A stretch of 62,275 bases of DNA from a virus, in the IMG/VR virus record IMGVR_UViG_3300043395_004461, positions 1 to 62,275 of that record; one strand, written 5' to 3'. The position numbers and the translations under genes were made by a program. A model generated the notes under the pieces. It was not told the origin of the DNA. It did not search any database and saw nothing but the letters and a program-made list of their open reading frames with translations. Shown one piece after another: positions 9,272-39,369 of this stretch; the first letter of the stretch is position 1, and each line of letters begins with the position of its first letter.

Positions 9272-10591
9272 ATGAAATTTACATCAATTTTGAGACAAGT
9301 TATTTTGGAGCAATCGAGGTTTGAGATTTTGAGAGATGCTCTTACAAAACCAACCACAGATAAGAAGGGTGAAAAACAAAAGCCTAAGATGTCTATCGGT
9401 GAGTTTTTGCAATTGGTACAAGCTGACCCAACAACAAGATTGAACAACGTTGACCCTGAGACTGCCGACTCAAAGGAACTTGCTAAAATCAAGGCTGGTG
9501 GATATGTTCAGTGGTTAATCAAAAATTATTTGAATCCAAGAACAGAGAGAGCCCCTGGTGATACAGGTTACGAAAAAGAAGTTAAGCAAGTCAAAGAAAC
9601 TTTCATGGAAGACTTGTATAAGGTTTCCGATGACTTAAAAAAATTCGAAAGATTCAAAGGTAGATTACCTAAAGAAATGAGGGATATCAATAACTTGACT
9701 CCTGACCAACTATATGATGCGGTTAAGGATTTCGATTTGACTTTAGCGACAACTACAAAATCTGAAAGAAAAAGTGCACCTGTTCACCCTGGTGCTAAAT
9801 TACTTTATGATGGTGAAAATTGGAGAGTTATTGAAATTGAGAACAAAGGTGCTACAGGTAAAGAAGCGGCTTGTTTCTACGGTGGAAATAACAAAGAAAC
9901 AAGATGGTGTACTTCAGCTCCAGGTGCAAGTTGGTTTGATAGATATATCAAAGACGGACCATTATATGTAATTTTCAACCCTAACGACCCTAAAATTGCT
10001 CCTGAAACAGGATTACCTGTTGAAAGATATCAATTCCATTTCCCATCAGGTCAATTCATGGATAAAGACGACCGTAGTGTAGACCTAATTAAGATGTTGA
10101 ATGGTCCAATGGTTGAGTTGAAATCTATATTCAAGCCTGAGTTTGCAAAAGGTCTTACTGTTGGTGGAGAAAAATTGGTTATCGATAGTTTCAGTCATGG
10201 TGCCATCGGTAAATTTATCGGTCTTTATGGCCTTGATGACCTCATTGATAACTTACCTGAATCATTGAAAGAGTTCCAAATTCAAAACAGAGACAACAAA
10301 AACGAAATCAATATCTCAATTCCTGAATCAATCTCAAGATTCCAAAATCTTCAGATGGTTCTATTAGATAACTGTATTGATAGTGTCCCTGATTCAATAT
10401 GTGAATTGCCTAAGTTGAAATTCTTGGCTCTTATCAATAACCCAAAACTTAAGAGCATTCCTGATTGTATTGGAAACTTGCCTAACTTATTCTTCTTGAA
10501 TCTCAAGGGAAGTGATAATGTGCAGGTTCCTGAAAGTATCAAGTCGAAAGGTACTGATATGGGTAATGGAATGTGGGATTTACAAGATTAG
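9272..10591 (+). CDS. Tagged WCT-domain protein with leucine-rich repeats
   Basis: The 439-residue protein starts with a capsid-type tag, MKFTSILRQVILEQ (cleavage expected at ILE/Q). A helical region follows to ~160. Residues ~170-270 form a domain with ETRWCTSAPGASWFDRYIKD (WCT at 212-214) and PSGQFMDKDD (259-267); the same landmarks occur in the 58699-60264 protein and in part in the 26229-27986 protein. Residues ~327-425 hold leucine-rich repeats (repeated LPxxIxxLPxLxxLxL). LRRs usually bind proteins, so it may be a delivered effector that docks on a host target. Late-type box upstream; role inferred. Confidence 0.75.
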   Translation: MKFTSILRQVILEQSRFEILRDALTKPTTDKKGEKQKPKMSIGEFLQLVQADPTTRLNNVDPETADSKELAKIKAGGYVQWLIKNYLNPRTERAPGDTGYEKEVKQVKETFMEDLYKVSDDLKKFERFKGRLPKEMRDINNLTPDQLYDAVKDFDLTLATTTKSERKSAPVHPGAKLLYDGENWRVIEIENKGATGKEAACFYGGNNKETRWCTSAPGASWFDRYIKDGPLYVIFNPNDPKIAPETGLPVERYQFHFPSGQFMDKDDRSVDLIKMLNGPMVELKSIFKPEFAKGLTVGGEKLVIDSFSHGAIGKFIGLYGLDDLIDNLPESLKEFQIQNRDNKNEINISIPESISRFQNLQMVLLDNCIDSVPDSICELPKLKFLALINNPKLKSIPDCIGNLPNLFFLNLKGSDNVQVPESIKSKGTDMGNGMWDLQD

Positions 10592-15116: not shown

Positions 15117-17996
15117 ATGGGCGATATCTTAATAGTTCCAAGTAATACGTTAGCTCCGCAACCCGACCGTATACCGTATATTAACTGGGTAAACAACAGT
15201 ACGAGTAGTTGGAAAGTCGTATCAGGCTCAACAATCAATATTAGTTCTCCTACTCAAGTCAATACCGTATCGGTTCAAATTTCTAATGCGATTATATCTG
15301 TGGTATCGTTGAACGTTAGAAACAATTTTACAATTGGAGGAGTACAGGTAATCGATGGTACTGCCAATTGGATTGGTCCCGACACAGGAATTGCTGGAGC
15401 GCAAGGAGCCACGGGTCCAACGGGTGCTCAAGGTGCCACAGGTTCACAAGGAGCTACAGGTAATACAGGTGCTCAAGGTGCAAACACAGGTGCTCAAGGT
15501 TCTACAGGTGCTCAAGGTGCCACAGGTGATACAGGAGCTCAAGGAGCTACAGGAGACACAGGTCCAACAGGAGCTCAAGGTGCTACAGGAAATACAGGTG
15601 CTCAAGGTGCCACAGGTAACACAGGAGCACAAGGTCCAACAGGAGCTCAAGGTAACGTAGGTCCAACGGGAGCGGTTGGTCCGACAGGAGCCCAAGGTTC
15701 TACAGGTGCTCAAGGACACACAGGAGCACAAGGAGCCATAGGTAATACAGGTGCTCAAGGTCCGACAGGAGCACAAGGTAACGTAGGTCCAACAGGAGCA
15801 GTAGGTCCAACAGGTGCTCAAGGCTCAACAGGAGCACAAGGTGCGGTTGGTCCGACAGGTTCGGTAGGTCCAACAGGTGCTCAGGGTCCAACGGGTGCAC
15901 AGGGTAACGTAGGTCCAACAGGAGCAGTTGGTCCGACAGGTGCTCAAGGCTCAACAGGAGCACAAGGTGCGGTTGGTCCGACAGGTGCGGTTGGTCCAAC
16001 AGGAGCACAAGGTCCAACGGGTGCACAAGGTAACGTAGGTCCAACAGGAGCTGTAGGTCCTACAGGAGCCCAAGGTTCGACAGGTGCACAAGGACATACA
16101 GGTGCACAAGGAGCTATAGGTAATACAGGTGCTCAAGGTCCAACGGGTGCACAAGGTAACGTAGGTCCAACAGGTGATACTGGTCCAACGGGAGCTCAGG
16201 GTTCAATTGGTGCCACAGGTAATACAGGAGCACAAGGTGCTACAGGTAATACAGGAGCACAAGGACCCACTGGAGCTCAAGGTAATGTGGGGCCAACAGG
16301 TGCAACAGGTCCGACTGGTTCTCAAGGAGCAACAGGACCAACAGGTGCAGTTGGACCAACAGGTGCAACAGGTCCAACTGGCTCACAAGGTGCTGTCGGT
16401 CCAACAGGGTCAGTAGGTCCAACAGGAGCTGTAGGAGCGACAGGTTCACAAGGTGCAACGGGAAACACAGGAGCAGTAGGTCCAACAGGCGCGGGAGGTC
16501 CCACAGGGGCTCAAGGTTCCATAGGGGCTGTAGGACACACAGGAGCACAAGGTGCTACAGGTGGAGGAGGTTCTGCAGGTGCTCAAGGAAACACAGGGCA
16601 TACAGGAGCACAAGGTGCAGGAGGAGCAGGCGGAAATACTGGTTCTCAAGGTGCTGTTGGTCACACAGGAGCACAAGGTGCGGGAGGTGCTGCTGGTTCA
16701 ACAGGAGCTCAAGGAGCAACAGGTAATACAGGAGCACAGGGTGGTGGAGGAGCTGCAGGAAATACTGGTTCCCAAGGTGCGGTGGGTAATACGGGAGCAC
16801 AAGGCGCCACAGGAGGCGGAGGTTCAACAGGAGCTCAAGGGGCCACAGGTAATACAGGTGCTCAAGGAGCACCAAACGCTGCAGGTTCTCAGGGTGCTAC
16901 AGGTTCACAGGGAGCTAAAGGACCGACAGGAGCCGCAAACATTACAGGGCCACAAGGGGTCCAAGGTGCCACAGGTAATACAGGTGCTCAAGGAAATACA
17001 GGGGCTGGAGGTAATCAAGGTTCACAGGGAGCTGTCGGAAACACAGGTGCACAAGGAAATACAGGAACAGGAGGTTCTCAAGGGTCACAAGGAGCCACGG
17101 GACATCCAGGAGCGCAAGGTGCTACAAACTCAGGGGGTTCTCAAGGAGCTCAGGGTGCAACAGGACACCCAGGAGCACAAGGAGCTGTAGGTGCAACAGG
17201 ACCTACAGGACCAGCAGGAAATACAGGTCATCCAGGAGCTCAAGGTTCAACGGGTGCGACAGGTTCACAAGGACCTGGAGGTTCACCAGGACCACAAGGT
17301 GCTCAAGGTGCGAAAGGTGGTACAGGATACGTTGGTTCAACACAAGGTGCTACAGGAAATACAGGTGCTCAAGGGGCTCAAGGTCCAACAGGTCCAACAG
17401 GACCAAGTGGAACTTGTAATGCCAACTTGGTATGGTCAAACTGTACTCAATATTCATTATGTAATTATCCATACAGTTGTGGTTCGTTCTACTATTATAC
17501 AACAGTTTCATGGAGTGGATGTGCTGACGTACAGTTATATACCGCTTCAGATTGTAGTCAGTGGACCGCAGGTGCAAGGAACGTGAGATACCAAGGTAGT
17601 TCTTGTGCTGGATATACAGGAAGTGGTGGATACTATATTTACAACTACTTCTGTTCGGATAGGAGACTTAAAAGAAATATTGTAACTCTTGAGGACTCTT
17701 TAAATAAAATTCTTCAGATTGATACTGTTGAATTCGATTGGAATGAAAAATTAACTGACGGAAAATATAGAGATATTAATGGACTCAAAAAGATTCACTC
17801 AGTTGGTTTGATAGCTCAAAACGTAAAAGAGTTTTATCCGACGGTAGTAAAAGTCAACCACCAAGGTTACTATTATATTGAATATGTTAAATTGAATGCA
17901 GTATTAGTTGAGGGTATAAAGGAACAACAACTATTTATTGATGATATTGAAAATCAAATAAAAGATTTAGAATTAAAATTGAAAAATGCCCACTAA
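15117..17996 (+). CDS. Collagen-like tail fibre with Cys-rich head and S74 chaperone domain (fibre 1)
   Basis: The 959-residue protein has a ~90-residue beta-rich N-terminal domain, about 670 residues of Gly-X-Y triplets (mostly GAQ, GPT, GNT), an ~85-residue head with eight Cys ([17 protein letters not shown] onward) and a C-terminal Peptidase_S74 intramolecular chaperone domain from Ser847. S74 trimerises the fibre and then cuts itself off at a Ser-Lys dyad; here SDRRLK has Ser and Lys five apart, as in endosialidases. The Cys-rich head is absent from the other two fibres and may be a receptor-binding tip. Its gene overlaps fibre 2 by 11 nt. Confidence 0.9.
15651..16406 (+). repeat. 126-bp tandem super-repeat in fibre 1 (six units)
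   Basis: The element GGTAACGTAGGTCC recurs at 15651, 15777, 15903, 16029 and 16155 and in degenerate form at 16281, always 126 bp apart. Each unit encodes 42 residues (14 triplets). Confidence 0.9.
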
Positions 17997-20700
17997 CGTT
18001 ATAATATATCCTAATGGAAATGCTGGTGGTAACACCGCTCCACATACTGTATTTGAAGATGCGAGTGGTGGAAGAATCCAACTCAACGTAGGAGCTGACG
18101 GGGTAGTTGTTGTTTCATCTACGACTAACTCCAATATTGCAACACTTGGAGCAACAGTAACTGTAAGTGGAAGTTCTGTTACAGGTACAGGCAAAGGTTT
18201 ATATGTTGGTGGTGTTAAGATGGTTAACTCTGATGGTACATGGGCAGGACCAACAGCGGGTATCGCAGGTGCTCAAGGAGCACAGGGAGGTCAGGGAGCT
18301 CAAGGAGCACAGGGAGGTCAGGGAGCACAAGGTGGTCAAGGAGCTCAGGGAGGACAAGGTGCTCAAGGTGGACAAGGTTCGCAAGGAGCAAAAGGTGGAC
18401 AAGGTGCTCAAGGGGCAAAAGGTTCACAGGGAGCCACTGGTAACACTGGTGCTCAAGGAGCCCAAGGAGCAAGTACAGGTGCACAGGGTAGTACAGGAGC
18501 TCAGGGTGGTCAAGGAGCCCAAGGCGCTCAAGGTGGTACGACAGGAGCACAAGGTGCTACAGGTAACACAGGCGCTCAAGGTTCTCAAGGAGCCCAAGGA
18601 GCAAGTACAGGTGCACAGGGTAGTACAGGTGCCCAAGGTGGTCAAGGAGCCCAAGGAGCTCAAGGTGGTACTACAGGAGCCCAAGGTGCTACAGGTAATA
18701 CAGGTGCTCAAGGAGCTCAGGGTGCTCAGGGAGGAACTACGGGAGCACAAGGTAGTACAGGAGCCCAAGGAGGACAGGGAGCTCAAGGAGCTCAAGGTGG
18801 ACCAACAGGAGCACAAGGAGCCACAGGGAATACAGGTGCTCAAGGAGCTCAGGGTGCTCAAGGAGGAACTACAGGTGCTCAAGGTTCAACTGGAGCTCAA
18901 GGTGGTCAAGGAGCACAAGGAGCTCAGGGTGGTACAACGGGAGCACAAGGAGCCACAGGGAATACAGGCGCTCAAGGGGCGCAAGGAGCTCAGGGAGCAA
19001 GTACAGGTGCTCAGGGAGGTCAAGGAGCCCAAGGAGGACAGGGAGCTCAAGGAGCGCAAGGAGGCACAACGGGAGCACAAGGAGCCACAGGAAATACAGG
19101 TGCTCAAGGAGCACAAGGAGCTCAGGGAGCAAGTACAGGCGCCCAAGGAGGTCAAGGTGCACAAGGAGGTCAAGGTGCACAAGGAGCTCAAGGTGGAACT
19201 ACAGGTGCTCAAGGTGCTACAGGTAACACAGGTGCCCAAGGTGCTACAGGAGCTCAGGGAGGAACTACAGGTGCTCAAGGTGCTACAGGTAACACAGGTG
19301 CACAAGGTGCTACAGGAGCACAGGGTGGAACCACAGGTGCTCAAGGGGCGACAGGTAATACGGGAGCACAAGGTGCACAAGGAGCACAGGGTGGAACCAC
19401 AGGTGCTCAAGGTGCCACAGGTAATACGGGAGCACAAGGTGCACAAGGAGCTCAGGGAGCAAGTACAGGAGCACAAGGAGCAACAGGAGCTCAAGGTTCA
19501 CAAGGTGGTCAAGGTGCACAGGGAGCGAGTACGGGAGCCCAAGGTGCTACAGGTGCTCAAGGTAGCACAGGAGCTCAAGGAGCTCAGGGAGCAAGTACAG
19601 GTGCTCAAGGCGCGACAGGAGCACAGGGAGCTCAAGGTTCTCAAGGAGCCCAAGGTGCTAGCACAGGAGCCCAAGGTGCTACAGGTGCTCAAGGTAACAC
19701 AGGAGCTCAAGGTGCTCAAGGAGCTAGTACAGGTGCTCAAGGTAATACAGGAGCTCAAGGTGCTCAAGGTTCACAAGGAGCTCAAGGAGCTAGCCAAGGT
19801 TCACAAGGTGCGGTTGGAGCTCAGGGAGCCCAAGGTTCAACAGGAGCTCAAGGAGGACCTCAAGGAGCTCAAGGAGCTGTTGGTTCAACGGGTGCGCAAG
19901 GAGCCCAAGGTGCACAAGGAACCCCTACAGGAGCTCAAGGAAACATAGGTGCTCAAGGAGCTCAAGGAGCCCAAGGTGCACAAGGAGCAAGTACAGGAGC
20001 CCAAGGTGCAACAGGAAGAACAGGTGCTCAAGGTTCACAAGGAGCCCAAGGTGCAAACACAGGAGCCCAAGGTAACGTTGGTGCTCAAGGAGCTCAAGGA
20101 GCCCAAGGTGCTCAAGGTGCTAACACTGGAGCACAAGGTGCTCAAGGATTACCAGGTAACCAAGGTGCTCAAGGAGCTCAAGGTGCAAATACAGGAGCTC
20201 AGGGTGCTCAAGGTCCAGGTGGAGCACCAGGACCTAACAACGGTCCAACAGGAGCACAAGGCTCAACAGGAGCACAAGGCGCCACAGGTGGTCAAGGGTC
20301 ACAAGGGGGTCAGGGAGCTCAAGGGTCACAAGGCCCTACAGGTCCAACTGGTCCACCATCAGACCAAAGATTAAAGGATAACATCAAACCTTTACAGGAT
20401 GTTATGGATACCATAAAATTAATTCAGGGAGTTAGATTTGATTGGTTACCCCATAAAAAAATCGTTGAAGACCCAAATATTGCTACACCATATGCCTTTA
20501 CGGGAGGTTCTGTCGGATTCATTGCTCAAGACTTAGAAAAAGTTGTTCCCGAAGTCGTTTGGACTGATGATGAAGGATTTAAGTCTGTTGACTATGATTC
20601 AATGGTTGCATTTGGAATCGGAGCAATAAAAGAACAACAAGTCAGAATCGACAATATTTTGAAGAGAATAAATTTATTGAAAGAAAAAATAAATGGCTGA
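17986..20700 (+). CDS. Collagen-like tail fibre with S74 chaperone domain (fibre 2)
   Basis: The 904-residue paralogue of fibre 1 has a ~95-residue beta-rich N-terminal domain, about 690 residues of Gly-X-Y repeats dominated by GAQ, and an S74 domain beginning at Ser792 (SDQRLKDN) with the Ser-Lys dyad intact. Unlike fibre 3, its triplets are broken at regular intervals by single extra residues (GASTG, GGTTG, GANTG). It is translationally coupled to both neighbours by short overlaps. There is no separate head before the S74 domain, so the N-terminal domain or the collagen shaft may carry specificity. Confidence 0.9.
18562..19485 (+). repeat. 132-bp and 66-bp tandem super-repeats in fibre 2
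   Basis: Matching sites at 18562, 18694, 18826, 18958, 19090 and 19222 are spaced 132 bp; those at 19288, 19354 and 19420 are spaced 66 bp. The 66-bp unit encodes 22 residues: seven triplets plus one extra residue. Confidence 0.88.
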
Positions 20701-23269
20701 AGATATTATAATAACCCCAGGTAGTGGACAGATAGATTTTTTGGACACTGGAAGTACATCAACTCTACTTGTTGTATCTAGTGGTACTCTCCAATGGAAA
20801 AGAGGTGCAACAACCTATCTTACATGGAATTCAGCCGCTCCAACATTTAGGGTTAGTGACGCGGATTTGAAGTTGACTACCAAGTTAGTTAACAATGCTT
20901 TAGACCCATTGATAACTTCAGTCGGTTGGTTGGGAAATCCCGAACCACAAGGAGCTCAAGGTCCTACAGGTGCTCAAGGCTCAGTCGGACCAACGGGTGC
21001 TCAAGGTCCCACAGGTGCTCAAGGTTCAGTTGGACCTACAGGAGCCTCGGGTGCAACAGGTTCACAAGGAGCGGTGGGTGCTCAAGGTTCAACAGGAGGC
21101 CAGGGTGCACAAGGTGGTCAGGGAGCGCAAGGTTCTCAAGGAGGTCAAGGTTCTCAAGGAGGTCAAGGGGCGCAAGGTAATACAGGTTCACAGGGTAGCC
21201 AAGGTGGACAAGGAGCCCAAGGTGCTCAAGGGGGTCAGGGAGCACAAGGTGCTACTGGCTCACAAGGTGGTCAGGGTTCTCAAGGAGGACAAGGTTCTCA
21301 GGGTAATACAGGTTCACAGGGTAGCCAAGGTGGACAAGGTGCTCAAGGGGCTCAAGGGTTACAAGGAGCGCAAGGTGCAACTGGTTCCCAAGGTGGTCAA
21401 GGTGCTCAAGGAGGACAAGGTTCTCAAGGAAATACGGGGTCCCAAGGTTCCCAAGGGGGACAAGGAGCTCAAGGTGCTCAAGGAGGACAAGGAGCACAAG
21501 GTGCAACTGGTTCCCAAGGTGGTCAAGGTGCCCAAGGTGGACAAGGTTCTCAAGGTAATACTGGGTCACAAGGAAGTCAAGGTGGACAAGGAGCTCAAGG
21601 TGCTCAAGGAGGACAGGGTGCACAAGGTGCAACGGGTTCCCAAGGAGGACAAGGTTCACAAGGTGCAGTTGGTTCCCAAGGAAATACGGGGTCACAGGGT
21701 AGCCAAGGAGGACAAGGTGCTCAAGGAGCGCAAGGTGGACAGGGAGCACAAGGTGCCCAAGGTTCTCAGGGTGGTCAAGGTTCTCAAGGAGCTGTTGGTT
21801 CACAAGGTAACACTGGTTCACAAGGTTCTCAAGGAGGACAAGGTGCTCAAGGAGCTCAAGGAGGTCAAGGTGCTCAAGGAGCTCAAGGTTCACAAGGAGG
21901 ACAAGGTGCTCAAGGAGCTCAAGGAGGTCAAGGTGCTCAAGGAGCTCAAGGTTCACAAGGAGGACAAGGAGCACAAGGAGCTCAGGGTGGACAGGGCGCT
22001 CAAGGAGGTCAAGGTTCACAAGGAGGACAAGGAGCTCAAGGTTCGCAAGGAGGTCAAGGAGCTCAAGGAGCCCAAGGTTCACAAGGTGGACAAGGTGCTC
22101 AAGGAGCTCAAGGTTCACAAGGTCCCGTGGGTAACCAAGGCTCACAAGGTGGACAAGGCGCTCAAGGGGCTCAGGGTAGCCAAGGAGGACAAGGTGCTCA
22201 AGGTTCTCAAGGAGGACAAGGTGCTCAAGGTGCTCAAGGTTCACAAGGCGCCAAAGGAGGACAAGGAGCACAAGGAGGTCAAGGTGCTCAGGGAGCTCAA
22301 GGGTCTCAAGGAGGACAAGGTGCTCAAGGTTCACAGGGTGGACAGGGAGCACAAGGTGGTCAAGGAGCTCAAGGTGCAACGGGTAATCAGGGTTCACAAG
22401 GTGGACAAGGGGCGCAAGGAGCCCAAGGTGCTCAGGGTCAAACAGGGCCCCAAGGTGCACAAGGTGGACAGGGTGCTCAAGGAGCACAAGGTGGACAGGG
22501 TGCTCAAGGAGCTCAAGGGTCACAAGGTGGACAGGGTGCTCAAGGAGGTCAAGGTGCTCAAGGAGCTCAGGGTGCTCAAGGGTCTCAGGGTGGTCAAGGT
22601 TCACAAGGTTCTCAGGGAGGACAAGGCGCTCAAGGAGCCACAGGACCTGGTGGCGGGCAAGGTGCTCAAGGAGGACAAGGAGCCCAAGGTAGTGTTGGAG
22701 CTCAAGGACCTGGTGGTGGACAAGGTGCCCAAGGTACACAAGGACCAAAAGGACCTCAAGGAGCACAAGGACCAACAGGTGGACAAGGGGCTCAAGGAGC
22801 CCAAGGTGGTCAGGGTGCTCAAGGTGTTGGAGGACCTCCTGGTAACCAAGGAGCCCAAGGCTCACAAGGTTCACAAGGACCTGCTGGTCCTGGTGGTTCT
22901 ACAGGACCTCAAGGTGCACAAGGAGCTCCAGGTCCTACGGGACCTACGGGTCCGTCAGATATAAGATATAAAACAAATATCCGACCTATCACTAACGCTA
23001 TAGATAAAATATCCAAGATAAGAGGGGTAAATTACAACTGGAACAACGAAAAAACAAATGATGGTTTAGTTGATGTTGGTTTCATTGCCCAAGAATTACA
23101 AGTTGCCTTCCCTGAATTGGTGGCAGGTAAAGAAGATGACGAAAATGTGTTAGTTGTAAAATATGACTCGTTGATTGCTGCGTGTTTGGAAGCAATCAAA
23201 GAACAAAGTGAAATCTTAGATTATAATGAGAAGAAATTAGAGATTTTAGAAAAAAGTTTGGGAATCTAA
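20693..23269 (+). CDS. Collagen-like tail fibre with S74 chaperone domain (fibre 3)
   Basis: The 858-residue third paralogue has a short beta-rich N-terminal domain (~85 residues, with [15 protein letters not shown]), about 660 residues of almost uninterrupted Gly-X-Y triplets rich in Gln (GAQ, GSQ, GGQ) and an S74 domain from Ser755 (SDIRYKTN), again with Ser and Lys five apart. Glutamine at Y replaces hydroxyproline, as in other bacterial and phage collagens. It overlaps fibre 2 by 8 nt and converges on the tagged metallopeptidase gene with a 2-nt gap. Confidence 0.9.
21176..21931 (+). repeat. 126-bp tandem super-repeat in fibre 3 (six units)
   Basis: The GNTGSQ-coding site recurs at 21176, 21302, 21428, 21554, 21680 and 21806, a constant 126 bp. 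The period equals that of fibre 1 though the encoded triplets differ. Confidence 0.9.
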
Positions 23270-33851: not shown

Positions 33852-34165
33852 TGGCAAAAATTATCAAATTAACTGAATCGGATTTAAATAGAATTGTTAA
33901 GAGAATAATCCGCGAACAAAAAGACAAAAAAATATCAATTGTAACACCAGGTGCTAATGCAGAAGCGGAAATAAAAATGGACTCTGAGGGGAACAAAATT
34001 TTAGTTGTTAGAACTGAAACAGGTCGTGAACAATCTATGAAGGTTAAAACAGCTTTACCAAAGGGTACGTTCATGTTTGAAATGGGTAAAGACGGTGAGA
34101 GAATGTTCGGATATGAGCCTAAAACAAAGAAAAAATTTGAAATTTTTTCGATTGAATTGAAGTAA
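33851..34165 (+). CDS. Small tagged virion-type protein
   Basis: The 104-residue protein has one of the clearest tags: MAKIIKLTESDLNRIVKRII then Arg-Glu-Gln (IRE/Q). After removal, about 80 residues of beta-rich domain remain (KKISIVTPGANAEAEIKMD onward). It overlaps neighbours by one base on each side. It would be packaged as a small internal protein if the tag works as proposed. Confidence 0.72.
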   Translation: MAKIIKLTESDLNRIVKRIIREQKDKKISIVTPGANAEAEIKMDSEGNKILVVRTETGREQSMKVKTALPKGTFMFEMGKDGERMFGYEPKTKKKFEIFSIELK

Positions 34166-35580
34166 TGAAAAGAGTAATTGTTGAGTCAGGTCTCAGAGAT
34201 ATATCGGCTTTGAGGAAGAGATATCCCAAAGCCGAAATTTATTTTCACCAAGATTTAGATGGTGTGACCACCGCAATTGCCATGAAAAAATATCTTGAGG
34301 ATAATGGTATAGAAGTTGTCGGAGCTCACGTCATTCAATACGGGGACAAAGAATTCGCTATTAAAAAAAATGATGCGGAAGGTGATACAATGCCAGTTTT
34401 AGTGGATTTTGCACATGGTAAACCAATGTTTAAAATACACACTGACCACCATGATAAGCAAGTTGGTGCGGAAAAAGAAGCATCAAAATCATTCAGACAA
34501 GCTCGTTCCAACGTAGAGACAATTTCACAAATAGTATCACCAAAAGATTTATTTCCCTCTCAGGACATCACGTTAATTAGCACTGTAGATTCGGCTGACT
34601 TTGTGAAGCAAGGTTTGAATCCTGAAGATGTAGTTAATTACATTTTTAGACTTGATAAAGATAAGACACTGTCTAAAAACAAGATGTTACTTGGATTAGT
34701 TATTAACAAACTAATATTAGCCTTCAAGAATAAAAAAGGTTTCATGGAAGACCTTGTAATGAATTCAGAACCATCATTACTTTCAATATTGAATAACATT
34801 AAATCGTGGATGAAAGCTACCAATGCAGAAACAGTTGATGTTCTACAAAAAAGGTCAGAAGATTATCACGAACAAATGAAAAATTATCCAAAAAGAGTTT
34901 ATCAAGACGGAATAATTTTCCAATATGGAGCTGGAAGTATGAAAAGTGGTTCCTATGATAGATATACTCCATTCAGAGTTCACCCTGATGCAGACTTTTT
35001 AGTTTTATTGTGGCCAATGGGACTATTACAGGCATCTTGTAACCCTTTTAAAAAAGAAAGACAACTTAAGGGAGTTAATTTGGGGGAGATAGCACAAGAA
35101 GTTTTATTGGAATATGAACCTGCACTGAAAAAAAGAGTAATACCTCTTTCAACTTTGAAATGGATAAGTGAAATTTCTGTTGGACCTGAAAGTGTTGGAT
35201 TTACATTTAAGGATTTTGATGCACTATTTGGGGGTAAATTTCAAATGATTGAGGGAGGAGAAGAAATTATATCCAAATTGAAACCAATTATGGACAAACC
35301 TTTTTCTGAGTTAACTGAAGAGGAAAAAAATGTGTTAGATAAAGTTGGAATTAACATGTGGGACTTTATTCAATCTCAATCTGGAGGACATAAGTGTATT
35401 ACAAATATTTCAGGTCTCAATTATTTAGGTAGAAAAACAAGACCATCCGAAGACCCATATAGATATTCACCCGACAAACCCGATGTGCCCTATATAAAGT
35501 TTATGAAGGAAGTGGGAAAGAAAATGGTTGAAAAAATCAAAGAAAAAATTAATTCCTCAAAAGTTGAAGTCGAACAATAA
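34165..35580 (+). CDS. DHH-family phosphoesterase
   Basis: The 471-residue protein carries FHQDLDGVTTAIAMKKYL (D-x-D motif I of DHH enzymes) and HTDHHDKQVGAEK (the DHH motif), with VLVDFAHG between them, as in RecJ nucleases and nano-RNases. The C-terminal half has HPDADFLVLLWPMG and a GGHKCITNISGLNYLG motif like the glycine-rich DHHA1 substrate motif. It would degrade single-stranded DNA, short oligonucleotides or cyclic dinucleotides. Degrading cyclic dinucleotide signals would be anti-CBASS, but that is speculative. Confidence 0.8.
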   Translation: MKRVIVESGLRDISALRKRYPKAEIYFHQDLDGVTTAIAMKKYLEDNGIEVVGAHVIQYGDKEFAIKKNDAEGDTMPVLVDFAHGKPMFKIHTDHHDKQVGAEKEASKSFRQARSNVETISQIVSPKDLFPSQDITLISTVDSADFVKQGLNPEDVVNYIFRLDKDKTLSKNKMLLGLVINKLILAFKNKKGFMEDLVMNSEPSLLSILNNIKSWMKATNAETVDVLQKRSEDYHEQMKNYPKRVYQDGIIFQYGAGSMKSGSYDRYTPFRVHPDADFLVLLWPMGLLQASCNPFKKERQLKGVNLGEIAQEVLLEYEPALKKRVIPLSTLKWISEISVGPESVGFTFKDFDALFGGKFQMIEGGEEIISKLKPIMDKPFSELTEEEKNVLDKVGINMWDFIQSQSGGHKCITNISGLNYLGRKTRPSEDPYRYSPDKPDVPYIKFMKEVGKKMVEKIKEKINSSKVEVEQ

Positions 35581-35598
35581 TTGACTTATTATTTGTGT

Positions 35599-36138
35599 AT
35601 GGCAAACAAAGTATACACAAAAAAAGGTGACGACGGCACAACAAGTTTGTTATCAGGCCGAAGGGTTCCCAAAACAATTCAAGAAATTAAGGCTGTAGGT
35701 TCACTCGATGAACTTAACTCATTTGTAGGATTACTCCGAAGTGAGACCTATAATTCACATGCTGATTTGGAAATAATCCAATGGAATCTTTTCAATGCGG
35801 GGTCCATGATTATCAACGATAATAAAACAGAATTAACTGAAGTTACCGAAGAGGATGTAAAGTTGTTAGAGGATGCTATGGATGTGATGAATCAAAAGTT
35901 ACCACCACTGAAAAATTTTATCTTACCAAAAGGTACAAGAGCTAGTTGTTTAGCACATATTTGTAGAACAATTGCAAGAAGAACTGAAATTGAAGTATTA
36001 GAATGTAAAGTATTGGATAATTTCGAAAAACTACACCCAATCACAATCTATCTTAACAGATTAAGTGATTTCTTCTTTGTTTTGGCAAGATTTATTGGAA
36101 ATAGAGAAGACGTGAACGAAACTATTTGGAAAAACTAA
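35599..36138 (+). CDS. Cob(I)alamin adenosyltransferase (PduO/MMAB type)
   Basis: The 179-residue enzyme moves adenosine from ATP to cob(I)alamin, making adenosylcobalamin. ATG 35599 gives the canonical start MANKVYTKKGDDGTTSLLSG with the ATP-binding TKxGDxGxTxL motif. Also present are SLDELNSFVG, FILPKGTRASCLAHICRTIA with the conserved Arg/Ser residues, and IYLNRLSDFFFVLAR. All hallmark residues are intact and the length is normal. Upstream a weak TAtTTG-like element lies near the ATG. In a phage it may support a B12-dependent class II ribonucleotide reductase. Confidence 0.9.
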   Translation: MANKVYTKKGDDGTTSLLSGRRVPKTIQEIKAVGSLDELNSFVGLLRSETYNSHADLEIIQWNLFNAGSMIINDNKTELTEVTEEDVKLLEDAMDVMNQKLPPLKNFILPKGTRASCLAHICRTIARRTEIEVLECKVLDNFEKLHPITIYLNRLSDFFFVLARFIGNREDVNETIWKN

Positions 36139-36496: not shown

Positions 36497-36916
36497 ATGA
36501 AACAACAAAGGTACGTTGGTGTGATGGTCAAATGTGGAGATAAAATCCTCCTATGTAAAAGAAATAATCTTGGTTCTTTTCCTGGTATGTGGTCCATTCC
36601 AGGTGGTAAACTTGAAGAAAATGAATCAACCCAAGAAGGTGCTCGAAGAGAATTCTTCGAAGAAACAGCTAAAGATATTGATGGACTTGAATTAAAGTTC
36701 ATCGGACTAATTCCAAGACATACCCGTGATGGAAAAAAGGTAAAAGGTTTAATGTATGTTTATTTGTTAGAAGTCGAAAAATGTATTGAACCTGATTTAG
36801 AAAACGCTATTGACGGTGAAGAACATACAGATTGGGGATATTTCACAATCGATGAGGTAAAACCTGAAACTTCGGGTGAATATATGCATAAACTCGCTGA
36901 AATTATATTAAAATGA
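36497..36916 (+). CDS. Nudix hydrolase
   Basis: The 139-residue enzyme has a full Nudix box, GGKLEENESTQEGARREFFE followed by ETAKDI (GX5EX7REUXEEXGU form). The N-terminal RYVGVMVKCGDKILLCKRNN and FPGMWSIPGG are typical of MutT-type members that hydrolyse nucleoside triphosphates or nucleotide-linked metabolites. The stop overlaps the next start (ATGA). Confidence 0.92.
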   Translation: MKQQRYVGVMVKCGDKILLCKRNNLGSFPGMWSIPGGKLEENESTQEGARREFFEETAKDIDGLELKFIGLIPRHTRDGKKVKGLMYVYLLEVEKCIEPDLENAIDGEEHTDWGYFTIDEVKPETSGEYMHKLAEIILK

Positions 36917-37014
36917 TTTGGATTATATTTGTAGGAGTAATTGCTTTTGGTCTTTACTGTTGGTGGGATATCGAAAGACAAATAAAAAAGAATATCGACG
37001 ACATGGATTTGTAA
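36913..37014 (+). CDS. Single-helix membrane peptide
   Basis: The 33-residue ORF (MIWIIFVGVIAFGLYCWWDI, then a charged tail) starts in an ATGA overlap with the Nudix gene. It has one transmembrane helix. The coupling and composition support it over a longer ORF in another frame of the same DNA. Confidence 0.55.
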   Translation: MIWIIFVGVIAFGLYCWWDIERQIKKNIDDMDL

Positions 37015-37055
37015 AATATTTTTTTTACAAAGGTTACTTTTCGTCATTTTGGGAA

Positions 37056-37063
37056 TATTTATA
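37056..37063 (+). promoter_or_regulatory. TATTTATA box
   Basis: A perfect octamer ends 5 nt before ATG 37069 of a very small ORF; ATG 37063 overlaps its last base. Confidence 0.35.
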
Positions 37064-37068
37064 TGTTC

Positions 37069-37158
37069 ATGTCCGAAAGGACGAACACCCCAAAAAATGT
37101 TTCACTACATACGACAGAACGAGAGTTTTTTCAAAAAGTGAAACACCGAGATGAATAA
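37069..37158 (+). CDS. Possible 29-residue protein
   Basis: The ORF encodes MSERTNTPKNVSLHTTEREF and a short basic end. Its main support is the TATTTATA box 5 nt upstream and the terminator that follows at 37179. It may be a real small gene or a leader. Confidence 0.3.
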   Translation: MSERTNTPKNVSLHTTEREFFQKVKHRDE

Positions 37159-37178
37159 AATAGTAATCTCGAAATTTC

Positions 37179-37236
37179 AGTCCCACGAATTTGGTTATTT
37201 GAGAAAATCTCCTTAGATTTGTGGGACTTCTTTTTC
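37179..37236 (+). terminator. Terminator upstream of the RNA region
   Basis: AGTCCCAC and GTGGGACT form an 8-bp stem with a long AT-rich loop, followed by TCTTTTTC. It separates protein genes from the RNA region. Confidence 0.7.
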
Positions 37237-37260
37237 AAATTAAGTTCTTAAAAATATTGA

Positions 37261-37323
37261 TAGCTCCTGCTGGTACAACCAGCGCATGACGTGGATAGGT
37301 GACCGTGGGGTAGTAGGAGTTTA
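37261..37323 (+). ncRNA. Possible small structured RNA element before the tRNA
   Basis: CTCCT (37264-37268) can pair with AGGAG (37315-37319), enclosing a perfect GCTGG/CCAGC hairpin and a second weaker arm. The shape is tRNA-sized, but there is no T-loop or standard anticodon arm. It may be a processed leader or part of the RNA system at 37.4-38.5 kb. Confidence 0.3.
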
Positions 37324-37337
37324 TCATTAACTTATAT

Positions 37338-37409
37338 CGTGAGGTAGAGCAGCGGTAGCTCACAAGGCTCATAACCTTGGGGTCGTAGGTTCGAATCCTA
37401 CCCTCGCAA
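37338..37409 (+). tRNA. tRNA-Met(CAT), initiator-like
   Basis: A full 72-nt cloverleaf can be drawn with D stem GAGC/GCTC, anticodon stem CAAGG/CCTTG, loop CTCATAA and T arm GTAGG/CCTAC with loop TTCGAAT. Positions 1 and 72 are C and A and do not pair, and the 11-24 pair is A-T, both hallmarks of bacterial initiator tRNA. The three anticodon-stem pairs nearest the loop are A-T, G-C, G-C rather than three G-C. CCA is not encoded. It lies just upstream of a large structured RNA. Confidence 0.9.
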
Positions 37410-37413
37410 CTAC

Positions 37414-37431
37414 AATCAGGGAGACCTGATT
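37414..37431 (+). ncRNA. GNRA hairpin after the tRNA
   Basis: AATCAGG and CCTGATT form a perfect 7-bp stem capped by a GAGA tetraloop, 4 nt after the tRNA. It may guide 3' processing or be the first helix of a larger RNA. Confidence 0.55.
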
Positions 37432-37439
37432 AGTTCTTT

Positions 37440-37505
37440 GAAATATTTCATTTAAACCTGTCCTATTAAGAGTAGGGGGTCTTCGGAATTAAATGAAAAA
37501 ATTTC
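37440..37505 (+). ncRNA. Long hairpin between tRNA and giant RNA
   Basis: TTTCATTTAA (37446-37455) pairs perfectly with TTAAATGAAA (37489-37498), extended outward by a further GAAAT/ATTTC match, and encloses an ACC/GGT and CCTA/TAGG inner stem. Confidence 0.5.
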
Positions 37506-37524
37506 AAAAAAAGTTTTATAAGGA

Positions 37525-37556
37525 TTTGACTGATTCCAAAATCTTTCTTAACTTTG
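37525..37556 (+). promoter_or_regulatory. Bacteroidetes-type promoter of the large RNA
   Basis: TTTG at 37525-37528 and TAACTTTG at 37549-37556 are separated by 20 nt, matching the host consensus. The expected start (about 37561-37565) falls at the base of a 15-bp helix, so it should drive the structured RNA. Confidence 0.65.
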
Positions 37557-37562
37557 TAAGAC

Positions 37563-38505
37563 AATTGGAAGGAAGGGGTTGTAAATGTTCCAACTTCGGT
37601 GGGTCGTAAAGATACCTCTTCTTTCCAAATTAGATAGTTCTTTGTTTTAAGATATTGGCCGTCTATGGTCGTTAAATAAACTGTGAAAGCAGTATAAAGT
37701 GGGAATCACTGGTTTGGTGATTTCTGCGGTTTCATCTTCGGGTGGAACTCGTGTAGACAATCAGGATATCATCTAACCTTTACTACCGAGGGTAACACTG
37801 TAGGGAACGTGGTTGGGTGACCAAGCGATACGGGTCGTTTGGTTGAGGTCGGAAGACCAATAAGAATAACCTGAAGGATATATGTGAGAATTGATGGCAT
37901 CCACCATCACAATCACGTTTTCCAATGTAAACGGTGACTTAAAACCGAAAGGTATGTTGAAAAACAGGTGGTGCTGATTCAACCTTAACCTTGACCCTAC
38001 CAAGGGTATGAGTTATGAAGTTGTCGTAAAACATGGAGGTCGGGAGACTTCAGAGGGTAGTTTAGTATCGTGTCGTTCAAAAGATGGCATGGCTTCTGAC
38101 GGGCCGCTACCTTCCTCATCCGTAAACCAACCTATTATTAATTTCAATTGGTGAAAATCTAATAAAATCAATAAAGGAAAAGTGCTCGTCAGTTGTGGAC
38201 AACAGGTCACTACATAGTAATGAGAGGTTCATTGCCGTGAAGGGTCCCAAACCCGACATGAGTTTTTCGAAAATTCTCTAATCCCGCAAGGATGAATTGG
38301 CTCGGCAGGGTCGAAGAGTGATGAGTAAAGAGAGAGTAGTACACAACTTAAGGATTGGTTAATCTAATTGACCGTGACTGAGGATTACTTCTCAAAAGGA
38401 AGTGGAAATGAAGGGAACAAATAATCCTTCTAAAGATTCTCAATAAAACTTGTATTCTCAGAGTTTTTTGCCAAACCCCTTCGTATCTACGTTGGGGTTT
38501 TTTTG
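37563..38505 (+). ncRNA. Giant structured noncoding RNA candidate (GOLLD/ROOL-like class)
   Basis: About 940 nt lack a credible protein gene but are full of helices. The RNA would open with a perfect 15-bp helix with two G-U pairs (37565-37579 with 37614-37628) holding a cUUCGg hairpin (37590-37602). GNRA hairpins occur at 37813-37824 (GTGA), 37847-37858 (GGAA), 37944-37953 (GAAA) and 38036-38051 (GGGA). Longer pairings include 38053-38060 with 38107-38114 and 38350-38356 with 38423-38429. A host-type promoter precedes and a terminator ends it. Large ornate RNAs (GOLLD, ROOL) are known in phages near tRNAs; class membership is inferred. Confidence 0.7.
38473..38505 (+). terminator. Terminator of the large RNA
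   Basis: AAACCCC (38473-38479) pairs with GGGGTTT (38494-38500) and is followed by further T. It ends the noncoding block. Confidence 0.8.
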
Positions 38506-38514
38506 TTTGCAGTA

Positions 38515-38555
38515 TATTTATAAGAAAATAAAATCAATTTTGAAATATATTTATA
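38515..38555 (+). promoter_or_regulatory. Two TATTTATA boxes before the 38569 gene
   Basis: Perfect octamers occur at 38515-38522 and 38548-38555. The second ends 13 nt before ATG 38569 of a tagged protein and lies after a terminator, so a promoter is needed here. Confidence 0.6.
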
Positions 38556-38568
38556 AAATAAAGAACTC

Positions 38569-39369
38569 ATGGATAAAAGAAAAATAAGACTAACAGAGTC
38601 TCAACTAATCAACTTAATCAAAAAATCTTTAGTTGAAACAAAATCTTTAATCAAAGAGGGAACAGGAACGGCTCAAGACCCATTTACAGATACTGATTTG
38701 ATGGACGACGTTGAACGTGTCGTAGATTTAATGGATGGAACTGCGGGTTTCACAGGTAAACTAGCTGGCATTGTAACTGGAGGTGCGGGATGGACATCAG
38801 AATCTGACCTCAATGAAATAAAAAAAATCTTAGAGAAATATAAGGGTAAGTATTGTAAAGTTTCGGATGAGGCTGTAGTAAGACCTTGTCTTAAACGATT
38901 TATGGAGATGTATGAAGACGATGAAGGTGATAGCCTTTATGATGATTTGAAAAGTCTATATCAGTCGAGATATGGTTCTACAGGTAAAGAAACTCGTAGA
39001 ACATTAATGAATTGGTTAGAGGCTGATAAGGATAAACAAGATGTGGCAAAAACCGCAGTTACTCCAACACCAACACCTACACCAAATGCCCAAACAACAG
39101 TCGTGGCAAACTTTTTCAAATGTTTAGAGGGCGTAACTGGATATCAGGTTTATGGTGAAGGAGATAAACAACATGGTAAAGTACCTTATAAAGGTGGTGA
39201 ACTTAGTTTTTTCTTGAATGGTAGTGCTATCGCGGGTTACCCAAATGAAGCTAACGTTCTTTTGAAAAAAGGTGGAAAAACTTGGTCGGCAAAGTGTGAG
39301 TGCGTTGCGTCAGGACCTGATGAACCAGGAGGTTTGAAAAATAAAACGGAATGGGTTTTAAAAGCGTAA
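38569..39369 (+). CDS. Tagged virion-type protein
   Basis: The 266-residue protein carries the model tag of the window, KIRLTESQLINLIKKSLVET (LVE/T) with a second possible site in SLIKEG. A helical domain follows (to ~150, with DDVERVVDLMDGTAGFTGKL and two Cys), then a Thr-Pro linker and a C-terminal domain with FKCLEGVTGYQVYGEGDKQH and a CEC pair. It is two bases from the next tagged gene. Function is unknown; packaging is inferred from the tag. Confidence 0.75.
   Translation: MDKRKIRLTESQLINLIKKSLVETKSLIKEGTGTAQDPFTDTDLMDDVERVVDLMDGTAGFTGKLAGIVTGGAGWTSESDLNEIKKILEKYKGKYCKVSDEAVVRPCLKRFMEMYEDDEGDSLYDDLKSLYQSRYGSTGKETRRTLMNWLEADKDKQDVAKTAVTPTPTPTPNAQTTVVANFFKCLEGVTGYQVYGEGDKQHGKVPYKGGELSFFLNGSAIAGYPNEANVLLKKGGKTWSAKCECVASGPDEPGGLKNKTEWVLKA

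What the first reader, a model, noticed from the sequence alone, without database searches (positions are those of the whole stretch)
37563..38505. A ~940-nt structured noncoding RNA beside a tRNA
The region has no credible protein gene on either strand but contains a perfect 15-bp opening helix, a cUUCGg hairpin, at least four GNRA hairpins and several long-range helices, with a host-type promoter whose start would match the first helix and a terminator at the end. Large ornate phage RNAs of the GOLLD and ROOL classes are known beside tRNAs and form RNA multimers. I cannot tell whether this is a member or a new class.
Basis: partly seen in the sequence, partly recalled or inferred. Interest (0 to 1): 0.87.

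Follow-up and report, generated by a model that had tools for sequence, protein, structure and literature searches.

The report
GOLLD cage RNA with rRNA-style leader
The stretch encodes GOLLD, a known giant phage RNA whose relatives assemble into hollow RNA cages, and in this clade of phages the RNA always carries the short start signal (boxA) that the bacterial hosts use on their ribosomal RNA genes, usually beside a phage-encoded initiator tRNA.

Summary
Rfam RF02032 matches window 38053-38464 at 320 bits (cut-off 150, model 1-416). Both halves covary strongly: 96 of 127 and 70 of 106 pairs show compensated double changes at about 70% identity. A Bacteroidota-type promoter (37525-37556) and a terminator (38473-38505) bound a transcript of about 940 nt. 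As an RNA it is a new member of a known kind.

The surprise lies in front of it. All 55 clusters with enough upstream sequence carry GTTCTTT(G/A)A within 160 nt of the cap (50 exact, 5 with one mismatch, the window among the five), against 0.7% exact in control windows. The same motif sits behind rRNA promoters of Flavobacteriales, where boxA is expected. The neighbouring tRNA is nearly always CAT (24 of 29) and initiator-type (22 of 24). tRNA, GOLLD, tmRNA and two unnamed small RNAs often each have such a leader. I infer that these phages transcribe stable RNAs with the host's rRNA antitermination machine. Nus-factor binding and GOLLD's function remain untested. Streptococcal and actinobacterial-type GOLLDs lack the motif.

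The parts
37525..37556 (+). Bacteroidota-type promoter of GOLLD (-33 TTTG, -7 TAACTTTG)
   Evidence: pattern scan; aligned in relatives; full promoter before boxA in 31 of 55 GOLLD clusters against 15 of 754 null windows
37565..37628 (+). leader hairpin, 15-bp helix 37565-37579 / 37614-37628
   Evidence: MFE -26 kcal/mol, z -4.6; hairpin kept with different sequence in relatives L019, L029, L106, L270
37637..37645 (+). boxA-like element of GOLLD leader, GTTCTTTGT (one base off GTTCTTTGA)
   Evidence: aligned column for column with exact copies in close relatives; motif in 55 of 55 clusters, 50 exact; same motif in host rrn leaders
37655..38052 (+). GOLLD 5' (cap) domain
   Evidence: homologous in 176 GOLLD RNAs; 127 consensus pairs, 94.4% of cells paired, 96 pairs with double compensation
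38053..38464 (+). GOLLD 3' (ring) domain, Rfam RF02032; variable linker about 38115-38179 without tRNA
   Evidence: cmscan 320 bits, model 1-416; 106 pairs, 70 with double compensation; self-kissing loop dinucleotide GC at 38286-38287
38473..38505 (+). intrinsic terminator of GOLLD
   Evidence: hairpin AACCCC...GGGGTT plus T run, -13.9 kcal/mol, z -4.1
37338..37410 (+). initiator-type tRNA (CAT): C1.A72 mismatch, A11:U24, G30:C40 and G31:C39
   Evidence: ARAGORN; Rfam tRNA 63.5 bits; features
37244..37252 (+). boxA-like element before element X and the tRNA (GTTCTTAAA)
   Evidence: sequence; 11 of 14 upstream initiator tRNAs in GOLLD clusters have such a motif within about 100 nt
37259..37325 (+). 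element X: conserved structured RNA directly upstream of the tRNA, not in Rfam
   Evidence: 67 distinct relatives; core pair A-T/C-G/T-A covaries; closing stem 9.6 bp against 7.2 when partners are swapped
37433..37441 (+). boxA element before element Y, GTTCTTTGA exact, behind a GNRA hairpin 37414-37431
37440..37506 (+). element Y: small structured RNA between tRNA and GOLLD promoter, not in Rfam
   Evidence: 20 distinct relatives, stem pair T-A/C-G covaries; z -2.75

Best explanation
This is a phage GOLLD RNA of about 940 nt that is transcribed like a host ribosomal RNA. SHOWN: GOLLD identity, its two-domain fold by covariation, its own Bacteroidota promoter and terminator (by sequence), and a boxA-type motif just behind the promoter in every member of its clade. 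INFERRED: host RNA polymerase starts at 37525-37556; the nascent boxA recruits NusB-S10 and the other rrn factors; the modified polymerase resists Rho on this long untranslated RNA and helps it fold; the finished RNA assembles through kissing loops and A-minor contacts into a multimeric cage, as GOLLD env-38 does in vitro. The constant company of an initiator-type tRNA, and often a tmRNA with the same leader, suggests that the island serves translation during infection; what the cage does there is not known.
For: Rfam 320 bits. Covariation of both domains. Intermolecular loop L21a dinucleotide: GC in 40 of 53, and many of the rest carry TCGA, i.e. CG; PMC12286853 reports exactly this GC/CG switch as evidence of multimers. 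BoxA: 55 of 55 clusters within 160 nt, 50 exact, null 11 of 1532 exact. Its distance to the cap varies from 16 to 126 nt, and it is no more complementary to the core than shuffles (28 of 57 against 21 of 57), so it is a linear motif. The same motif in the same place in Flavobacteriales 16S leaders: 9 of 30 exact, 16 of 30 within one mismatch, several others GTTCATAGA-like. Promoter-like sites near GOLLD are followed by boxA in 49 of 96 cases; elsewhere in the same contigs in 9 of 127, and 8 of those 9 lead tmRNA genes. tmRNA leaders 28 of 52 strict. Initiator-type tRNA 22 of 24 neighbouring CAT tRNAs against 40 of 126 in a control sample. Independent named case: the 634,780-bp phage LR745206.1 has initiator-type tRNA, hairpin, GTTCTTTGAAATATTG and GOLLD in that order.
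Against: No expression or binding data. The window's own GOLLD boxA has one mismatch (GTTCTTTGT), and one-mismatch matches occur in about 7% of null windows; its identity rests on alignment with exact copies in close relatives. Streptococcal prophage GOLLDs, a divergent viral GOLLD (L002) and actinobacterial-type ones (L043, L121, L046) have no such motif, and neither do five ROOL loci, so boxA is not needed for this kind of RNA in general. The clusters share ancestry and are not fully independent. In E. coli rRNA is itself only partly dependent on boxA (PMC4807359, PMC10250234). The host phylum is inferred from promoter and leader type, not shown.
Confidence: 0.75

Rival explanations
1. GOLLD as above, but the GTTCTTTGA motif is a structural part of the GOLLD fold or a processing or quaternary contact, not a Nus-factor site.
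For: It is invariant across the clade and close to the cap.
Against: Its distance to the cap ranges from 16 to 126 nt with whole hairpins in between; no complementarity to the core above shuffles; the same motif leads tRNAs, tmRNAs and host 16S genes.
Confidence: 0.1
2. The several boxA leaders act as decoys that titrate NusB-S10 away from host rRNA operons, shutting down host ribosome synthesis; the GOLLD body is secondary to this.
For: Up to three boxA-like leaders within 400 nt in the window; high-level transcription of a lambda nut site is reported to titrate Nus factors (PMC4807359).
Against: It does not explain the strong covariation of about 800 nt of GOLLD or of X and Y; each boxA precedes a structured RNA rather than being a free-standing array.
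Confidence: 0.08
3. The leader was simply inherited from host stable-RNA genes (for example tmRNA) and has no special role for GOLLD.
For: Some host tmRNA genes also carry GTTCTTTA or GTTCATTA just before the mature end (3 of 29 exact, 12 of 29 within one mismatch).
Against: The nine bases are kept in 55 of 55 clusters while the sequence around them is not alignable, which implies selection.
Confidence: 0.06
4. A new class of giant RNA distinct from GOLLD.
For: The 5' half is not covered by the Rfam model.
Against: The full-length Rfam match at 320 bits and the same 5' cap in 176 RNAs that also have the GOLLD 3' domain.
Confidence: 0.01

Closest known systems
GOLLD RNA, Rfam RF02032; structure of GOLLD env-38 (Kretsch et al. 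2025, PMC12286853)
   Same: Rfam 3' domain at 320 bits; two-domain layout of about 400 + 412 nt against 420 + 413 in env-38; variable linker; phage-encoded; downstream of a Met tRNA as in env-38; self-kissing loop L21a with GC.
   Different: The paper sections read and the library searches mention neither a boxA leader nor initiator identity of the tRNA.
ROOL RNA, Rfam RF03087
   Same: Giant phage or prophage RNA forming a cage, often near tRNAs.
   Different: No Rfam match here; five Lactobacillales ROOL loci have no boxA and no tRNA in the flanks held, up to 1.5 kb.
rrn antitermination leader (promoter, boxB-like hairpin, boxA) and the rrn transcription antitermination complex
   Same: Promoter, short hairpin, GTTCTTTGA/GTTCTTTAA in the same order as in Flavobacteriales 16S leaders.
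   Different: It precedes a phage RNA, not rRNA; factor binding is untested.
Bacterial initiator tRNA (tRNA-fMet)
   Same: C1.A72 mismatch, A11:U24, G30:C40, G31:C39, CAT anticodon.
   Different: The third canonical G:C pair (29:41) is A:U; CCA is not encoded.

Membership tests
GOLLD RNA (RF02032) | match to the curated covariance model of the conserved 3' domain | tested here: met
   320 bits against cut-off 150, model 1-416
GOLLD RNA (RF02032) | structure supported by covariation across homologues | tested here: met
   cap 96 of 127 pairs and ring 70 of 106 pairs with double compensation
GOLLD RNA (RF02032) | less conserved 5' domain of about 420 nt preceding the 3' domain | tested here: met
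   37655-38052, shared by 176 GOLLD RNAs; homology to env-38's cap not testable without its sequence
GOLLD RNA (RF02032) | encoded in phage or prophage, often near tRNAs | tested here: met
   IMG/VR virus record; tRNA at 37338
GOLLD RNA (RF02032) | conserved intermolecular kissing loop (L21a, GC or CG dinucleotide) | tested here: met
   GC at 38286-38287; GC in 40 of 53 relatives, many of the others TCGA
GOLLD RNA (RF02032) | assembly into a 14-mer cage | not testable with these tools
   needs transcript and cryo-EM or mass photometry
GOLLD RNA (RF02032) | expression rising during lysis | not testable with these tools
   no RNA-seq data
ROOL RNA (RF03087) | match to the ROOL covariance model | tested here: not met
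   no hit in the window at gathering threshold, nor at E<=10 over 36900-38600
rrn-type boxA leader | boxA consensus behind a promoter, as in host 16S leaders | tested here: met
   clade 55 of 55, 50 exact; host leaders; the window copy has one mismatch
rrn-type boxA leader | binding of NusB-S10 and antitermination | not testable with these tools
   needs binding assay or Rho reporter
initiator tRNA | no strong pair at 1:72 and A11:U24 | tested here: met
   C1.A72, A11:U24
initiator tRNA | three consecutive G:C pairs in the anticodon stem | tested here: not met
   two G:C pairs, the third is A:U; hence 'initiator-type'

The most novel reading that the evidence does not exclude
A large clade of Bacteroidota phages, including huge ones, runs an 'RNA island' in which GOLLD, an initiator tRNA, tmRNA and two unnamed small RNAs carry copies of the host's rRNA leader, so that the phage borrows the rRNA transcription and folding machine for a cage-forming RNA that acts on translation initiation or ribosomes during infection.
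Probability: 0.45. Interest if true: 0.85.

Novelty: new member of a known kind. Interest (0 to 1): 0.62.

Why it matters
GOLLD forms one of the largest natural RNA-only assemblies known, and its function is an open question. A boxA leader in every tested member of a clade of 57 clusters, together with a recurrent initiator-type tRNA and tmRNA, ties it to the host's rRNA synthesis machinery and to translation. That yields direct tests: NusB-S10 binding, Rho sensitivity, folding with and without boxA, and pull-down of initiator tRNA or ribosomes. It also suggests how a cell can make and fold a 900-nt untranslated RNA in time.

Tried and rejected
A first pattern for GOLLD in viral contigs was too strict (2 hits). 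The Flavobacterium glycines pattern hit (L245) proved to be a chance match without a GOLLD hit. No 16S was found in the four first genomes, so 59 genomes of the order were searched. A first count of 16S leaders ignored orientation and was redone. The idea that any phage CAT tRNA is elongator-type was wrong: 40 of 126 control CAT tRNAs are initiator-like, so the enrichment beside GOLLD is about 2.9-fold, not absolute. The idea that boxA marks phage tRNAs in general was tested: only 7 of 248 first-of-cluster tRNAs have it. ROOL was tested for boxA: none in five loci. Two large genome searches failed on the server. RNAalifold on a rough alignment of element X gave only the core hairpin, so its closing stem was tested by partner swapping instead. 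Protein annotation of the window gave few hallmark genes. The sigma-70 scan found no GOLLD promoter, as expected for a Bacteroidota-type promoter.

Full report
WHAT IS THERE. The window is a 62,275-base virus record of IMG/VR. Between a NUDIX gene (36497-36916) and an ORF at 38569 lies a stretch of 1.6 kb without credible genes. It holds a tRNA (37338-37410) and the reported region. Rfam identifies the reported region: GOLLD, RF02032, 38053-38464, 320 bits against a cut-off of 150, full model. The Rfam model covers only the 3' domain. The 5' half was tested by homology.

RELATIVES. Degenerate patterns from the conserved 3' domain pulled about 200 further stretches from viral contigs. Profile searches found 176 RNAs with both the window's 5' cap and the GOLLD 3' domain, 57 clusters at 85% identity. 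Covariation is strong in both domains: cap, 57 sequences, mean identity 0.70, 127 consensus pairs, 94.4% of cells paired, 96 pairs with at least two double-compensated sequences; 3' domain, 53 sequences, 106 pairs, 93.4%, 70 pairs (consensus energies 32 and 30 standard deviations below column-shuffled alignments). The loop that kisses its own copy in the GOLLD env-38 structure, with a GC dinucleotide that switches to CG in evolution (PMC12286853), has GC here at 38286-38287. GC is kept in 40 of 53 relatives, and many of the others show TCGA. So the RNA is a GOLLD, and cage formation like that of env-38 (a 14-mer) is a fair inference, not shown.

BOUNDARIES. A Bacteroidota promoter, TTTG-N20-TAACTTTG, lies at 37525-37556. 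The predicted start falls at the foot of the leader hairpin (37565-37628, z -4.6). A terminator ends at 38505 (z -4.1).

THE LEADER. Alignment of close relatives showed eight invariant columns, GTTCTTTG, between the leader hairpin and the cap. Over the whole clade the nine-mer GTTCTTT(G/A)A occurs in the 160 nt before the cap in 50 of 55 clusters, and with one mismatch in the other five, the window among them (GTTCTTTGT at 37637-37645). Control windows from the same contigs have it in 11 of 1532 (exact) and 106 of 1532 (one mismatch) cases. It sits 16 to 126 nt from the cap, with unrelated sequence between, and is not complementary to the core above shuffles. It is therefore a linear motif, not part of the fold. 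The typical leader is promoter, 27 nt containing one GNRA-type hairpin, then the motif.

WHY BOXA. From general knowledge, the motif resembles boxA of rRNA operons. It was tested against host leaders. In 30 16S leaders from 59 genomes of the order of Flavobacterium glycines (Flavobacteriales), the same motif follows the rRNA promoter, about 67-120 nt before 16S, exact in 9 and within one mismatch in 16. Several others show GTTCATAGA or similar in the same place. One 16S leader reads AAGTTCTTTGAAAATATAGG, close to phage leaders such as GTTCTTTGAAAATATT. In E. coli boxA is described as necessary and sufficient to recruit the rRNA antitermination complex, which raises processivity and may chaperone folding (PMC10250234; PMC4807359). 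No paper found in the held library links boxA, or an initiator tRNA, to GOLLD; the library is incomplete: Morgado 2020 is not held, and Weinberg 2009 did not turn up in the searches.

SPECIFICITY. In the GOLLD clusters, promoter-like sites within 1.5 kb upstream of GOLLD are followed by an exact motif in 49 of 96 cases, elsewhere in 9 of 127. Eight of those nine lead tmRNA genes (confirmed by Rfam). Of 52 distinct tmRNAs in the loci, 28 have the strict motif within 90 nt. Some host tmRNAs have it too (3 of 29 exact, 12 within one mismatch). So the leader looks like a Bacteroidota stable-RNA leader that the phages use for their own stable RNAs. It is not a trait of all GOLLDs: Streptococcus prophage GOLLDs (L243, L244, L246), divergent L002 and tRNA-array GOLLDs (L043, L121, L046) lack it, as do five ROOL loci. 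Generic phage tRNA clusters have it in 7 of 248.

THE tRNA. The window's tRNA has C1.A72, A11:U24, G30:C40 and G31:C39: initiator-type, though its 29:41 pair is A:U. Of 55 clusters, 29 have a same-strand tRNA within 450 nt; 24 of these are CAT and 22 of the 24 initiator-type. In a sample of phage CAT tRNAs chosen without regard to GOLLD, 40 of 126 are initiator-type by the same rule. Some clusters counted as lacking a tRNA have a degenerate CAT tRNA at the same place that ARAGORN misses (L019, L028). Eleven of 14 upstream initiator tRNAs have their own boxA-like motif. In the 634,780-base phage LR745206.1 the order is initiator-type tRNA, hairpin, GTTCTTTGAAATATTG, GOLLD.

MECHANISM. The best-supported account is transcription of GOLLD by host polymerase modified through boxA. 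This would protect a long untranslated RNA from Rho and aid its folding, followed by cage assembly. The neighbours point to translation, and PMC12286853 cites pull-downs of ribosomes with GOLLD. The step from cage to effect is unknown. Decoy titration of Nus factors and a structural role of the motif are the main rivals.

NOVELTY. As an RNA it is a new member of a known family. The clade-wide rRNA-type leader and the initiator-tRNA pairing are, as far as the held library shows, undescribed.

Noticed in passing
window 37259-37325; L364-L432 and others: Element X, about 70 nt, core ACCAGNGCATGACNTGGAT, is widespread in phage contigs (scan stopped at 119 stretches; 67 distinct sites). It is mostly within 300 nt of tRNAs (51 of 67), often inside tRNA arrays and near tmRNA or GOLLD; no Rfam family. 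It looks like an unnamed phage RNA family.
   Followed up: partly
window 37440-37506; L364, L370, L375 and others: Element Y, a small hairpin RNA with core CCTGTCCNATTANGAGTNGGGGG, has its own promoter, hairpin and boxA leader in relatives; 20 distinct copies, stem pair T-A/C-G covaries; no Rfam family.
   Followed up: partly
L017, L024, L051, L064, L078, L099, L273, L277, L309: Phage tmRNA genes a few kb or less from GOLLD, with boxA directly before the mature 5' end; the L078 hit overlaps a group I intron hit.
   Followed up: partly
L480-L509 (host genomes): Some Flavobacteriales tmRNA genes also carry a boxA-like GTTCTTTA or GTTCATTA about 15 nt before the mature end.
   Followed up: partly
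window 35581-36138: A phage-borne cobalamin adenosyltransferase gene (PF01923, E 4e-49) a few genes upstream of the RNA island.
   Followed up: no
window 15117-23269: Three consecutive large tail-fibre genes, with matches to collagen-like minor tail families.
   Followed up: no
window 34165-35580: The protein's only relatives in named phage records are in huge phages of 635-735 kb (LR745206.1, LR756502.1, LR756501.1, LR756503.1), so the window may be a fragment of a huge phage.
   Followed up: partly
L026 about 9445-9520: In place of the initiator tRNA there is a degenerate copy whose anticodon loop reads ATTATAA instead of CTCATAA.
   Followed up: no
L125-L242 (control sample): About a third of CAT tRNAs in phage contigs look initiator-like, many with odd anticodon-stem pairs.
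   Followed up: no
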